Source of the DNA: a virus
Direction: 5' to 3' (one strand)
Length of the DNA stretch: 51,820 nt
Virus record (IMG/VR): IMGVR_UViG_3300046811_000037
Span: 1-51,820 of that record
Position 1 is the first letter of the stretch, and each line of letters opens with the position of its first letter. The position numbers and the translations under genes were made by a program. Shown here one piece after another: positions 26,026 to 33,027 of the stretch. The notes beneath the pieces are model-generated. The model was not told the DNA's origin and did no database searches. It saw nothing but the letters and a program-made list of their open reading frames with translations.

Positions 26026-26042
26026 CTTGACAACAATGCGAA

Positions 26043-26160
26043 GATAAGAGATACTTCAAGGGAACCGCGAGTCGTAGGTTCGAATCCTACCCGGCCGAAC
26101 ACTTCGGTTGGTAGCTCAGTGGTAGAGCAGCGGTCAGTAAACTTCTTTTATCACTTTTTT
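26043..26160 (+). ncRNA. candidate Y RNA (YrlA-like) with circularly permuted tRNA mimic, Y1
   Basis: The order is that of a tRNA cut in the anticodon loop and joined through the acceptor: anticodon-stem 3' strand ACCGC (26064), T-arm GTAGG-TTCGAAT-CCTAC, acceptor 3' strand CCGGCCGA, 5-base loop, acceptor 5' strand TCGGTTGG, D-arm GCTC..GGT..GAGC, anticodon-stem 5' strand GCGGT. Outside this, GATAAGAG (26043) pairs with CTTTTATC (26145), with TACT/AGTA between, closing the ends as in a Ro-binding stem. A T6 tract ends it. Bacterial YrlA RNAs have this permuted mimic and lie near rsr genes; a Ro gene lies 300 bases downstream. Confidence 0.75.
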
Positions 26161-26305
26161 CTAGTTGTCTATAACTTAATCTTTCTACCCAATGCGCAGC
26201 TCACGGTTACTTCCTCGCAAATGAAATCATACCGTCAGCGACTTTTTCTAGGGTGGATCATATATTTAGTTCCGATGCGAAAGCAACCTGGTTACTTCCC
26301 CTTTG

Positions 26306-26386
26306 AAATGAGAAACTGACGGTTCGATTCCGTCGTAGGCGTGGCCGCCATACACCAGAAGCTACTATTTCTAGGAACTTATTTTT
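26306..26386 (+). ncRNA. candidate second Y RNA-like transcript, Y2
   Basis: AAATGAG (26306) pairs with CTTATTT (26378), which merges into a T5 tract. Inside, a perfect T-arm GACGG-TTCGATT-CCGTC is followed by a closed acceptor-like hairpin GTAGGCG/CGCC-A-TAC with a TGGC loop, then a weak AGAA/TTCT arm in the D-arm position. The order mirrors Y1 but the D-arm is degenerate. Confidence 0.55.
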
Positions 26387-26392
26387 GAATCC

Positions 26393-26430
26393 TCCCAGCT
26401 ATCCCTGTGATTGGCTGGGATTATTTTTAC
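26393..26430 (+). terminator. terminator before the Ro gene
   Basis: TCCCAGC/GCTGGGA hairpin followed by ATTATTTTTA. It separates the ncRNA region from the TROVE coding sequence. Confidence 0.7.
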
Positions 26431-26462: not shown

Positions 26463-28055
26463 ATGGCTAAGTTTAATACTGCCGTGAAGATTGGTGTACA
26501 GTCTCCAATCAAGACTACGGGTAAGACTATTAAGAACGCGGATGGTAAGTCTGCCTTCGAGAGGGATACCAAGTCCGAGCTGTTCCTATTGGCAGTATCC
26601 AACTTTGTCGGACAGGATACCTTCTATGAGTCTGCTAAGAATCGCGATGATCGATTCTCTATTCTTTGCCAGAAGGTTGCAGTCGCTGACCCTGCTTGGT
26701 TCCGCAAGTTCGTGGGTTGGCTCCGTAATGGTGCTCAGATGCGCTCTGCGTCCATCGTAGCGGCTGCTGAGGGTGCCAAGGCACTTCTTGACGCTGGAGC
26801 TATGAACGGCTCTCCACGAGCCCTTGTAGCGGCTTCTATGGCACGTGCTGATGAGCCTGGTGAGTTCCTGGCGTACTGGACTTCCAAGTACGGTAAGAAC
26901 CTTCCTCAGGCCATTAAGAAGGGTGTTGCGGACGCGGCCAACCGTCTCTACAATGAGTATTCTCTTCTTAAGTATGATACTGAGACCAAGGGTTTCCGTT
27001 TTGCTGATGTTATTCAGCTTAGCCATGCTAAGGCAAAGGACGCAAAGCAGAACGATCTCTTCGGTTACGCTCTGAACCGTCGCTATGGGAACGTGGGTGA
27101 AATTCCTGCTTCTCTTGAAATGATTGCCAACCGTGATGCTCTTACGGCCCTTAAGGGTGACTTTTCTCCTAAGCGTCTTCTTGCCAATACTGAGTATGCT
27201 CAGATTGTCTTGAAGAAGGCGGGAATGACTTGGGAGTCTCTTGCTGGTTGGCTTCAGGGTCCTATGGACAAGAAGGCTTGGGAGGCTATTATTCCTTCTA
27301 TGGGTTACATGGCTTTGCTTCGTAACCTTCGTAACTTCCAGGAAGCTGGTATTAGTTCCACAGTACTCGATACTGTTCTAATTAAGCTGGCTGATTCTGA
27401 GGAAGTTGCAAAGTCTCGTCAGTTCCCATTCCGATTCCTGTCTGCGTACCAGGCTAACCAGGATAACCTTGAGATTGCGGCTGTACTTGAGAAGGCTCTT
27501 CGTGCTTCTCTGAGTAATGTTCCGGCTCTCTCTGGACGTACGTTGATCCTGGTAGACCGTTCTGGTAGTATGTTTGGAACTCCTGATAAGTCCACTGGAC
27601 TGTCTTGGGCCGATTCTGCTGCTGTCTTCGGTACTGCGCTTGCGCTTCGTGCGGAGGATGCGGATCTGGTACAGTTCGGTAGTGCTTACCGATACAAGGG
27701 TTATGAGCCTGTAACCTTCAAGCGGGGTAACTCTGTTCTTTCCATCCTGAAGAAGTTTAAGGATATGGGTGGAACCGATACAGCTGCGGCTATTCGTGGT
27801 AGCTTTAAGGACCACGATCGTGTTATTATTCTTACTGACGAGCAGTACAACGGTTGGGGTGGAGATCCTACCTCCAGTATTCCTTCCAAGATTCCGGTCT
27901 ACACATGGAATCTTGCTGGATACCGTGCAGCACAGAGTGAGTCTGGTAAGCTGAAGCGTCACACCTTTGGTGGACTGACTGATAAGGCTTGGCAGATGAT
28001 TCCTATGCTGGAAAGTGGGATGACTGGTGTCTGGCCTTGGGATCTGGTAAACTAA
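26463..28055 (+). CDS. Ro60/Rsr-like TROVE-domain RNA-binding protein
   Basis: The ATG after AAGGAGGATG gives 530 residues, the usual length of bacterial Ro (Rsr). The N-terminal ~340 residues are helical-repeat-like (SELFLLAVSNFVGQDTFYE, WFRKFVGWLRNGAQMRSASI) as in TROVE. The C-terminal part is a von Willebrand A domain with the MIDAS motif DRSGS at residues 365-369, later GGTDTAAAI and LTDEQ. Ro proteins are rings that bind Y RNAs and misfolded RNA 3' ends and, in Deinococcus, direct PNPase. Two Y RNA candidates lie just upstream. Confidence 0.9.
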   Translation: MAKFNTAVKIGVQSPIKTTGKTIKNADGKSAFERDTKSELFLLAVSNFVGQDTFYESAKNRDDRFSILCQKVAVADPAWFRKFVGWLRNGAQMRSASIVAAAEGAKALLDAGAMNGSPRALVAASMARADEPGEFLAYWTSKYGKNLPQAIKKGVADAANRLYNEYSLLKYDTETKGFRFADVIQLSHAKAKDAKQNDLFGYALNRRYGNVGEIPASLEMIANRDALTALKGDFSPKRLLANTEYAQIVLKKAGMTWESLAGWLQGPMDKKAWEAIIPSMGYMALLRNLRNFQEAGISSTVLDTVLIKLADSEEVAKSRQFPFRFLSAYQANQDNLEIAAVLEKALRASLSNVPALSGRTLILVDRSGSMFGTPDKSTGLSWADSAAVFGTALALRAEDADLVQFGSAYRYKGYEPVTFKRGNSVLSILKKFKDMGGTDTAAAIRGSFKDHDRVIILTDEQYNGWGGDPTSSIPSKIPVYTWNLAGYRAAQSESGKLKRHTFGGLTDKAWQMIPMLESGMTGVWPWDLVN

Positions 28056-30417: not shown

Positions 30418-30496
30418 GGGAATAAGATGGATTCGACTAACCGAAAAGCCGCATGCGGAGAGGTTAGGAGCGTGGGTTCGATTCCCACTATTTCCA
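30418..30496 (+). ncRNA. minimal tmRNA-like RNA (tRNA-like domain only)
   Basis: GGGAATA and TATTTCC form a 7-bp acceptor with G3:U70 and A73, the alanine identity set. GGATTCGAC (30429-30437) matches the conserved D-loop of tmRNA 5' ends. CTAACC/GGTTAG stands where tmRNA helix P2 begins, and T-arm GTGGG-TTCGATT-CCCAC completes the tRNA-like domain. The interior is only 19 bases (a CCGC/GCGG minihairpin) instead of about 250-300, so there is no tag frame or pseudoknots. It does not fit a normal anticodon arm. Confidence 0.6.
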
Positions 30497-30541
30497 CGGG
30501 TTTGGTACACCGGTTCGCTATAGGCGATGAAAGTACTACCT

Positions 30542-30810: not shown

Positions 30811-30896
30811 GAATAGGGTCGTACTATGGCCAAGTACAGGGATGCGGTAAGCATCTTGTCCGACGGGACATGAAGGTTCGAATCCTTCTCTATTCA
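30811..30896 (+). tRNA. tRNA-Tyr-like (anticodon GTA), no U33
   Basis: GAATAGG/TCTATTC acceptor, GTAC/GTAC D-stem, long variable arm TGTCC/GGACA. The loop CGGTAAG has G instead of U33, and C32:G38 could pair. Identity is tentative. Confidence 0.6.
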
Positions 30897-30989
30897 CTTT
30901 GGATTTGCTATGAGGCTGCGATGCGCAAAAGCCGCAATTACTACCTGTTAACCGTGAAAATCGGGTGTAGGTCAGGTCAAGTCCAATAT

Positions 30990-31819: not shown

Positions 31820-31990
31820 ATGAACATGGATAAGTTTTTGGGTAACGAAGTAACTCGTTGGAATAGTTCCAATGTGCCGCTTGAGTTACACCAGCACTTG
31901 CGAATGAGCTGGGAAGAATGTAAGATTTGGTCCAAGACGGGAGAGCTTCCCAGGAATATGGCGGCTCGCTGGGGATTTAAGGAGGAGTAA
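31820..31990 (+). CDS. hypothetical protein, 56 aa
   Basis: A basic, Trp-rich helical protein (MSWEECKIWSKTGELP). Its TAA overlaps the ligase ATG by one base, so the two are coupled. Confidence 0.65.
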   Translation: MNMDKFLGNEVTRWNSSNVPLELHQHLRMSWEECKIWSKTGELPRNMAARWGFKEE

Positions 31991-33027
31991 TGAAGCTATG
32001 GGATCTTTTCGATAAGAAGCTTTTTCACAGAATGATAGAGGACGGTTATATTCGTATTCGAGAGAATGAGTGTGGTTCTCTTCGTATCTTAGGGTATACC
32101 GAGAAGGCCCAATTTGACAGTGAATGGAACGAGGTTACTAAGCAGTGCCGTGGAATTGTCGTAGACCGACAGGATAATGTAATAGCGCGTCCCTTTGATA
32201 AGTTCATGAATTATGGGCAGAACCAAGCAGACTTGCTTCTTATGGATTACGCGGTTGAGGTAACCGATAAGATGGATGGTTCCCTTGGAATCTTGTTCTT
32301 CCACAAGATCTGGGATACAGCTACTCGTGGCTCTTTTGCATCCGAACAAGCATATGAGATGCAGAAGATCCTGAGCGACAAGTATACGGGTATTGAGTTG
32401 AATCCCGCGTGGACTTACCTTTTCGAGATTATCTACCCGGGTAATCGTATTGTCCTTGATTATGGTGATACTAGAGATCTGTATCTATTGGGAGCACGCC
32501 ATATCGAGACAGGCTCTATACGGGCCGCTAAGGACGTGGAGGAGTGGTATGGTCCTAAGACCCCCACTTACCCCTTTGCAACGCTCTCAGAGGCCCTTGC
32601 AGCCCCTCCTAGAGCCAACGCTGAGGGTTACGTAGTCTACTTCCCGGATCTGGACTATCGAGTAAAGATCAAACAGGAAGATTATGTGCTCTTACATCGT
32701 ATCGTTACAGGTTTGACTGCTCGCAGGATTTGGGAGAATATGAAGGAAGGTAAGAACCTATTCGACCTTCTAGAGATCGTTCCAGACGAATGGCACGAGT
32801 GGCTTGTCGGTAACTATGACAGTATCGGCGATATTTGGAGCGCCACCATGGATCTGATTGAAGCGGACTACGATAAGATTATTGAAATACTTCCTAAGGA
32901 CTTCACGCGCAAGCAATTTGCAGAAGTGGCCAAGACTTCGGACTATACGGGTTTTATGTTCATGCTATTAGATAATAAAGATATTAGTGACAAGGTTTGG
33001 GATTTAGTTCGCCCTTCTGCTGAGTAA
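31990..33027 (+). CDS. T4 Rnl1-like RNA ligase
   Basis: 345 residues. KMDGSLG holds the motif I nucleophile Lys94 that is adenylylated. CRGIVVD (residues 53-59) precedes it, YLFEIIYPGNRIV fits motif IIIa/III, and EGYVV.. then VKIKQEDYVLLH fit motifs IV and V. It would seal 5'-phosphate and 3'-hydroxyl RNA ends, classically repairing tRNAs cut by host anticodon nucleases. The adjoining 32-gene tRNA array fits that role. Confidence 0.9.
   Translation: MKLWDLFDKKLFHRMIEDGYIRIRENECGSLRILGYTEKAQFDSEWNEVTKQCRGIVVDRQDNVIARPFDKFMNYGQNQADLLLMDYAVEVTDKMDGSLGILFFHKIWDTATRGSFASEQAYEMQKILSDKYTGIELNPAWTYLFEIIYPGNRIVLDYGDTRDLYLLGARHIETGSIRAAKDVEEWYGPKTPTYPFATLSEALAAPPRANAEGYVVYFPDLDYRVKIKQEDYVLLHRIVTGLTARRIWENMKEGKNLFDLLEIVPDEWHEWLVGNYDSIGDIWSATMDLIEADYDKIIEILPKDFTRKQFAEVAKTSDYTGFMFMLLDNKDISDKVWDLVRPSAE

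What the first reader, a model, noticed from the sequence alone, without database searches (positions are those of the whole stretch)
26306..26386. A second Y RNA-like element in tandem, just before the Ro gene
A T-arm with TTCGATT loop, a closed acceptor-like hairpin and a 5'/3' end stem merging into a T tract repeat the plan of the first element 150 bases away. The D-arm is poor, so it is a diverged or degenerate copy. Two tandem Y RNAs of different sequence could load different cargo.
Basis: seen in the sequence. Interest (0 to 1): 0.7.

Follow-up and report, generated by a model that had tools for sequence, protein, structure and literature searches.

The report
Tandem phage Y RNA lacking D-arm
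A Streptomyces-type phage carries three different small Y RNA genes in a row, just before the gene for the Ro protein expected to bind them; the one reported here is a maintained Y RNA that keeps only part of the usual tRNA disguise, which makes it a new variant of a known RNA family.

Summary
The reported element is real, but its borders and its outer stem are wrong. The RNA spans about 26268-26379 and is the third, not the second, Y RNA-like unit between tRNA-Asn and the Ro gene. All three share a Ro-side stem: a variable end helix, then 5' CRATGCGNA... facing 3' ...TTTCTA, then a covarying upper helix. A covariance model built from eight relatives without the window finds all three (E 5e-23, 2.5e-7, 5e-7). 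The helices show compensatory changes. The D-arm is absent rather than decayed: other phages keep the same T-arm plus single hairpin with covariation. A 51-nt block of it is 89% identical in a phage whose Ro is only about 21% identical, so the business end appears to be an exchangeable cassette. Y RNAs beside Ro genes in phages are known, so this is a new variant, not a new kind. Expression, Ro binding and the partner of the T-arm end are inferred, not shown.

The parts
26029..26169 (+). Y RNA unit 1: lower stem GACAAC/GTTGTC, Ro-site signature, full tRNA-like module (T-arm, acceptor-like hairpin, D-arm)
   Evidence: R1 model E=4.8e-7; Rfam YrlA 43.5 bits, E=1.6e-8, below the gathering score of 69; orthologues in 10 loci
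26184..26257 (+).
   Evidence: R1 model E=2.5e-7; 12 orthologues with compensatory changes
26268..26379 (+). Y RNA unit 3, the element of the finding with corrected borders
   Evidence: Model built without the window: 96.5 bits, E=5.4e-23; covariation
26268..26273 (+). Unit 3 lower stem 5' arm AGTTCC (pairs with 26374-26379 GGAACT)
   Evidence: Covaries: UA to AU and GC to AU; permutation test over units 5.75 vs 2.28 pairs
26274..26281 (+). Unit 3 conserved internal loop, 5' side GATGCGAA (putative Ro contact)
   Evidence: GATGCG invariant in nine aligned unit 3 orthologues and shared by the other units
26282..26292 (+). Unit 3 upper helix 5' side AGC..CTGGT (pairs with ACCAG 26354-26358 and GCT 26361-26363)
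   Evidence: 100% of cells paired in 9 sequences, with two-sided changes
26293..26317 (+). Unit 3 linker TACTTCCCCTTTGAAATGAGAAACT with conserved ATGA(A/G)A motif
   Evidence: ATGARA in 10 of 81 units (expected 1.7, maximum 7 of 500 shuffles), in every D-arm-less T-arm unit of this group; block shared with LilMartin at 89%
26318..26334 (+). Unit 3 T-arm GACGG-TTCGATT-CCGTC
   Evidence: Inner 4 pairs 100% paired with two-sided changes; outermost pair in 5 of 9
26335..26353 (+). Unit 3 acceptor-like hairpin GTAGGCG-TGGC-CGCC-A-TAC
   Evidence: Hairpin at the same place in D-arm-less relatives, window register shifted by one; covarying 4-bp hairpin in Samistivirus
26364..26373 (+). Unit 3 conserved internal loop, 3' side ACTATTTCTA
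   Evidence: TTTCTA invariant in nine orthologues
26374..26379 (+). Unit 3 lower stem 3' arm GGAACT
26387..26430 (+). Terminator-like hairpin and T-rich tail after the array, before the Ro ribosome-binding site
   Evidence: -15.5 kcal/mol, z=-3.83; similar hairpins at this place in L002, L003, L004, L008, L009, read by eye
26463..28055 (+). Ro-like protein (TROVE domain plus vWA-like region), 530 aa
   Evidence: Pfam TROVE E=3.6e-18; solved TROVE proteins E=5.9e-29; relatives 61-71% identical

Best explanation
26268-26379 encodes a Y RNA, the third of three tandem Y RNAs serving the Ro protein encoded directly downstream. Its two ends pair into a bipartite stem (end helix, conserved internal loop CGATGCGNA / TTTCTA, upper helix) that most likely docks on the phage Ro ring. 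Its far end displays a T-arm stacked on one short hairpin plus a conserved AATGAGAA-type linker, and no D-arm. Most likely mechanism: the stem is the Ro anchor and the far end is an adaptor that brings Ro to a tRNA-recognising partner, by analogy with the Rsr-Y RNA-PNPase tether, or covers the Ro hole. The three units carry three kinds of far end (full tRNA mimic, none, T-arm only), so one Ro can form three different RNPs in a genome that also encodes many tRNAs and a T4 Rnl1-type RNA ligase. Shown by sequence: the three units, their helices, conservation and linkage to Ro. Inferred: transcription, Ro binding, partner identity and the RNA quality-control or repair role.
For: Model R1, built from eight relatives without the window, finds exactly three units in this stretch at 5.4e-23, 2.5e-7 and 4.8e-7 with matching ends. 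Covariation: 35 two-sided cells vs 13 shuffled, 0/500; slid partners fall to 38-46% paired. RNAalifold finds the same structure unaided, 9 pairs with two-sided changes. Across 36 distinct unit arms the lower stem averages 5.75 pairs vs 2.28 +/- 0.25 when arms are permuted. Most signature loci with convincing units also encode Ro, usually within 1 kb downstream; many of the rest end close to the array. The same signature encloses Rfam YrlA matches in bacterial contigs L132 and L234. Literature: Y RNA tethers Rsr to PNPase; YrlA mimics D, T and acceptor arms (PMC8394870, PMC7790460).
Against: No RNA data. Unit 3 has no Rfam YrlA or Y_RNA match even at E up to 10. Folding energy is not exceptional. 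The Ro-binding role of the internal loop is inferred from conservation and linkage only. PNPase or any other partner is not identified. The hairpin is only loosely conserved and may descend from acceptor or D-arm sequence.
Confidence: 0.82

Rival explanations
1. It is a degenerate Y RNA, once with a full tRNA-like module, that has lost its D-arm by decay and has no function of its own.
For: Syntenic units in BRock, GiJojo, LuckySocke and L088 have longer, D-arm-bearing modules; intermediate lengths exist in L008, L040, L084, L089.
Against: D-arm-less units recur in L009, L042/L046, L093 and L108 with compensatory changes in stems and T-arm, and a related form is kept in 48 Samistivirus records. 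The linker motif is conserved.
Confidence: 0.08
2. It is a decayed or split tRNA of the large tRNA cluster.
For: It lies in a cluster of 28 tRNAs and has a genuine T-arm; some database tRNA calls fall on syntenic units.
Against: No ARAGORN or Rfam tRNA match; permuted order T-arm then closed hairpin; enclosing covarying stem; conserved Ro linkage.
Confidence: 0.03
3. The array is a cis-acting 5' leader or regulator of the Ro gene (for example Ro autoregulation) rather than independent Y RNAs.
For: It is always upstream of Ro and followed by a terminator-like hairpin before the Ro start.
Against: A terminator between array and gene argues for separate transcripts; Samistivirus has two genes between the element and Ro; unit number varies from 3 to 6. 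Not exclusive with the Y RNA role.
Confidence: 0.07
4. The tRNA-like units are decoys that titrate host anticodon nucleases or tRNA-cleaving defence enzymes.
For: Such a competitive-inhibitor role was proposed for YrlA (PMC7790460); the phage has many tRNAs and an RNA ligase.
Against: Unit 3 has no anticodon arm and no D-arm, and unit 2 has no tRNA-like part at all, yet both are conserved.
Confidence: 0.05

Closest known systems
YrlA-type bacterial Y RNA (Rfam RF02553; Chen et al. 2014 RNA; Wang et al. 2018 structure)
   Same: Ends paired in a stem; permuted T-arm then closed hairpin; encoded beside a Ro/Rsr gene; unit 1 matches the Rfam model, and the same Ro-side signature encloses YrlA matches in bacteria.
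   Different: Unit 3 lacks the D-arm and gives no Rfam match; it sits in an array of three different Y RNAs.
Y RNAs without tRNA-like module (animal Y RNAs; D. radiodurans and YrlB-like RNAs, from general knowledge)
   Same: Bipartite stem with conserved internal loop; unit 2 has only a loop at the far end.
   Different: No Rfam Y_RNA (RF00019) match at E up to 10; unit 3 has a T-arm.
Phage Ro plus putative Y RNAs: mycobacteriophages (Chen 2014, cited in PMC12282133) and Listeria phage CKA15 (PMC12282133)
   Same: Phage Ro homologue with putative Y RNAs close by.
   Different: Here three to six units of different module type are delimited with covariation, with a D-arm-less subclass.
Salmonella rsr-yrlBA-rtcBA RNA repair operon (PMC7790460)
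   Same: Ro homologue, more than one Y RNA and an RNA ligase in one genome.
   Different: The phage ligase is T4 Rnl1-like (PF09511) and lies about 4 kb away in a tRNA cluster; no RtcB was looked for.

Membership tests
Bacterial Y RNA (Ro/Rsr-associated) | Encoded near a Ro/TROVE gene | tested here: met
   Ro gene starts 84 bases downstream of unit 3; linkage repeated across loci
Bacterial Y RNA (Ro/Rsr-associated) | 5' and 3' ends form a long stem with a conserved interruption | tested here: met
   Covarying lower and upper helices with invariant GATGCG and TTTCTA loop strands
Bacterial Y RNA (Ro/Rsr-associated) | Binds Ro/Rsr protein | not testable with these tools
   Needs co-purification or gel shift
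YrlA (Rfam RF02553) | Match at or above the curated score | tested here: not met
   Unit 3: no match at E up to 10; unit 1: 43.5 bits against a cutoff of 69
YrlA (Rfam RF02553) | T-arm with T-loop sequence | tested here: met
   GACGG-TTCGATT-CCGTC with two-sided changes
YrlA (Rfam RF02553) | D-arm in the tRNA-like module | tested here: not met
   Only a hairpin of 19 nt lies between the T-arm and the upper stem; likewise about 20 nt in four relatives
YrlA (Rfam RF02553) | Closed acceptor-like hairpin after the T-arm | tested here: inconclusive
   A hairpin is present, but in relatives only 3-4 pairs hold and the window register is shifted by one
tRNA | Cloverleaf recognised by tRNA models | tested here: not met
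   No ARAGORN or Rfam tRNA match at 26268-26379
Animal Y RNA (Rfam RF00019) | Model match | tested here: not met
   No match at E up to 10

The most novel reading that the evidence does not exclude
Phages keep a toolbox of Y RNAs in which a Ro-specific stem is combined with interchangeable far ends. The D-arm-less T-arm plus AATGARAA linker is a distinct far-end class recognised by a host factor other than Ro, and it moves between phages with very divergent Ro proteins, so one Ro ring is programmed for several partners.
Probability: 0.35. Interest if true: 0.65.

Novelty: new variant of a known kind. Interest (0 to 1): 0.5.

Why it matters
Why many Ro systems carry more than one Y RNA is not settled. 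Here the units share a Ro-side stem but carry different far ends beside one Ro gene in a phage, so gate, tether and tRNA-mimic roles could be separated by deleting single units. The signature also gives a simple way to find Y RNAs that Rfam misses and to correct false tRNA annotations in phage genomes.

Tried and rejected
Folding energy: not decisive. Short motif scans within the window: no better than chance on their own. Rfam at gathering score: tRNAs and one tmRNA hit only. My first stem script used a wrong anchor base (corrected). An automatic D-arm classifier failed, calling no D-arm even in unit 1, so D-arm statements rest on the alignments. Two Ro queries were out of frame. A fourth model hit at 30835-30949 (E=0.016) overlaps tRNA-Tyr and was not accepted. 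The primary Y RNA papers (Chen 2014, Sim and Wolin 2018, Wang 2018) are not in the library; statements about them rest on later open papers and general knowledge. No structure prediction of Ro was run.

Full report
Setting. The window is a 51,820-base viral record, a fragment of unnamed origin. It carries 28 ARAGORN tRNAs, a TROVE/Ro gene at 26463-28055 and a T4 Rnl1-type RNA ligase at 31990-33027. Its closest annotated relatives are Streptomyces phages BRock, GiJojo and LuckySocke, whose Ro proteins are 62-64% identical and which have the same order tRNA-Trp, tRNA-Asn, intergenic array, Ro, tRNA-Ala, tRNA-Lys.

Checking the observation. The T-arm GACGG-TTCGATT-CCGTC and the hairpin GTAGGCG-TGGC-CGCCATAC are present as described. 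Reading the same intergenic stretch in relatives showed a repeated framework...C-GATGCGNAG-...-GGTTACTTC on the 5' side and ...TTTCTA-G... on the 3' side, with the bases just outside complementary to each other. A script found this framework in 84 distinct stretches, a few of which look like chance hits on contigs without Ro. In a test that did not require pairing, 36 distinct arm pairs averaged 5.75 consecutive pairs in the lower stem against 2.28 +/- 0.25 after permuting partners, maximum 3.1 in 2000. In the window the framework gives three units: 26029-26169, 26184-26257 and 26268-26379. The finding is the third; the second was missed.

Independent test. A covariance model was built from eight relatives of the third unit, without the window. 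Searched over the whole window it returned 26268-26379 at 96.5 bits (E 5.4e-23), then units 2 and 1 at 2.5e-7 and 4.8e-7, with ends at the lower stems. The next hit (E 0.016) overlaps tRNA-Tyr. E-values from this short calibration are rough.

Structure. On nine sequences 82.5% of cells pair (67.6% shuffled), with 35 two-sided cells (13 shuffled, 0/500) and a covariation score of 0.437 (0.168 shuffled). The shortfall comes from the poorly aligned hairpin; the other four helices pair at 91-100%. Examples: AGC/GCT in the window is GAT/ATC in L093, AAT/ATT in L108 and GGT/ACC in L009; CTGGT/ACCAG becomes GGGGT/ACCTC; AGTTCC/GGAACT becomes AATACC/GGTATT. RNAalifold finds the same fold unaided. AAATGAG itself is part of a conserved linker, which may be why it caught the eye.

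The missing D-arm. Between the T-arm and the upper stem the window has 19 nt, only enough for one hairpin. L009, L042/L046, L093 and L108 have about 20 nt there. L008, L040, L084 and L089 have longer segments, and BRock, GiJojo, LuckySocke and L088 have modules of full YrlA-like length. Ten Samistivirus phages also have T-arm plus one short hairpin inside a covarying stem (98.1% of cells paired, 14 two-sided cells, 0/500); 48 records carry the element. This makes simple decay unlikely. Whether the hairpin descends from the acceptor or the D-arm is unclear: the aligner matches GGC-ATGG-CGCC of the short forms to the D-arm side of the long forms.

Module exchange. LilMartin's element shares a 51-nt block with unit 3 at 89% identity, yet LilMartin Ro is only about 21% identical to the window Ro, and its Ro-side loop differs (GTCGAAA... 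instead of GATGCG...). The far end thus looks like a cassette moved between Ro systems while the Ro-side stem stays with its own Ro. This is inference from one block. The linker motif ATGA(A/G)A occurs in 10 of 81 units (expected 1.7; maximum 7 in 500 mononucleotide shuffles), including every D-arm-less T-arm unit of this group; the motif was chosen after seeing the sequences, so the test is only indicative.

Relation to known Y RNAs. Unit 1 matches Rfam YrlA (E 1.6e-8, below the curated cutoff). The same Ro-side signature encloses YrlA matches in Lachnospiraceae and Roseburia contigs (L132, L234), so it appears to belong to bacterial Y RNAs in general. Reviews describe bacterial Y RNA as a paired stem that binds Rsr and a tRNA-like domain that binds PNPase, with DusA and TruB modifying the D- and T-loops of YrlA (PMC8394870). 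Y RNAs in mycobacteriophages were reported by Chen et al. 2014 (cited in PMC12282133). Unit 3 fits the general Y RNA plan but fails the YrlA definition (no D-arm, no Rfam match).

Mechanism. Most likely the stem docks on Ro and the far end recruits or gates. With three far ends beside one Ro gene, the phage could assemble three RNPs acting on its tRNAs or on damaged RNA together with its RNA ligase. A terminator-like hairpin after the array (z -3.8), with similar hairpins in relatives, suggests that the Y RNAs end as part of the tRNA transcript and Ro is expressed separately or by read-through. All of this paragraph is inference.

Verdict. Real, conserved, corrected in borders and structure; a new variant of a known kind.

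Noticed in passing
L003:2769-2843, L004:2774-2847, L131:302-373: Database tRNA calls (GiJojo tRNA-Arg(cct), LuckySocke tRNA-Ser(gct), Mildred21 tRNA-Ser(tga)) lie inside Y RNA units and are probably false tRNA annotations.
   Followed up: partly
window 30418-30499: 82-nt stretch matching Rfam tmRNA over the full model (47.4 bits, cutoff 47) although the model has 374 positions: it reads like a tmRNA with the mRNA-like part missing. Not recognised by ARAGORN.
   Followed up: no
window 30835-30949: Weak hit of the Y RNA model (E=0.016) overlapping tRNA-Tyr, with a GATGCGCA...ATTACTACC string near 30919; probably chance.
   Followed up: partly
L069:775-1585: At least six tandem Y RNA-like units at the edge of the fetched piece of an IMG/VR contig; the flank was not read, so an adjacent Ro gene is untested.
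   Followed up: partly
L132, L149, L208, L234, L244: The same Y RNA signature in bacterial contigs (Lachnospiraceae, Frankiaceae, Acidimicrobiaceae, Roseburia, Hungatella). L149 has a Ro gene 46% identical to the phage one amid a tRNA cluster and may be a prophage; L208 is also a dense tRNA cluster.
   Followed up: partly
L001:3986-4103: A Samistivirus Y RNA-like element sits about 0.8 kb before a Ro gene very different from the window's, with a different internal loop (GTCGAAA), as if Ro and its stem co-diverged.
   Followed up: partly
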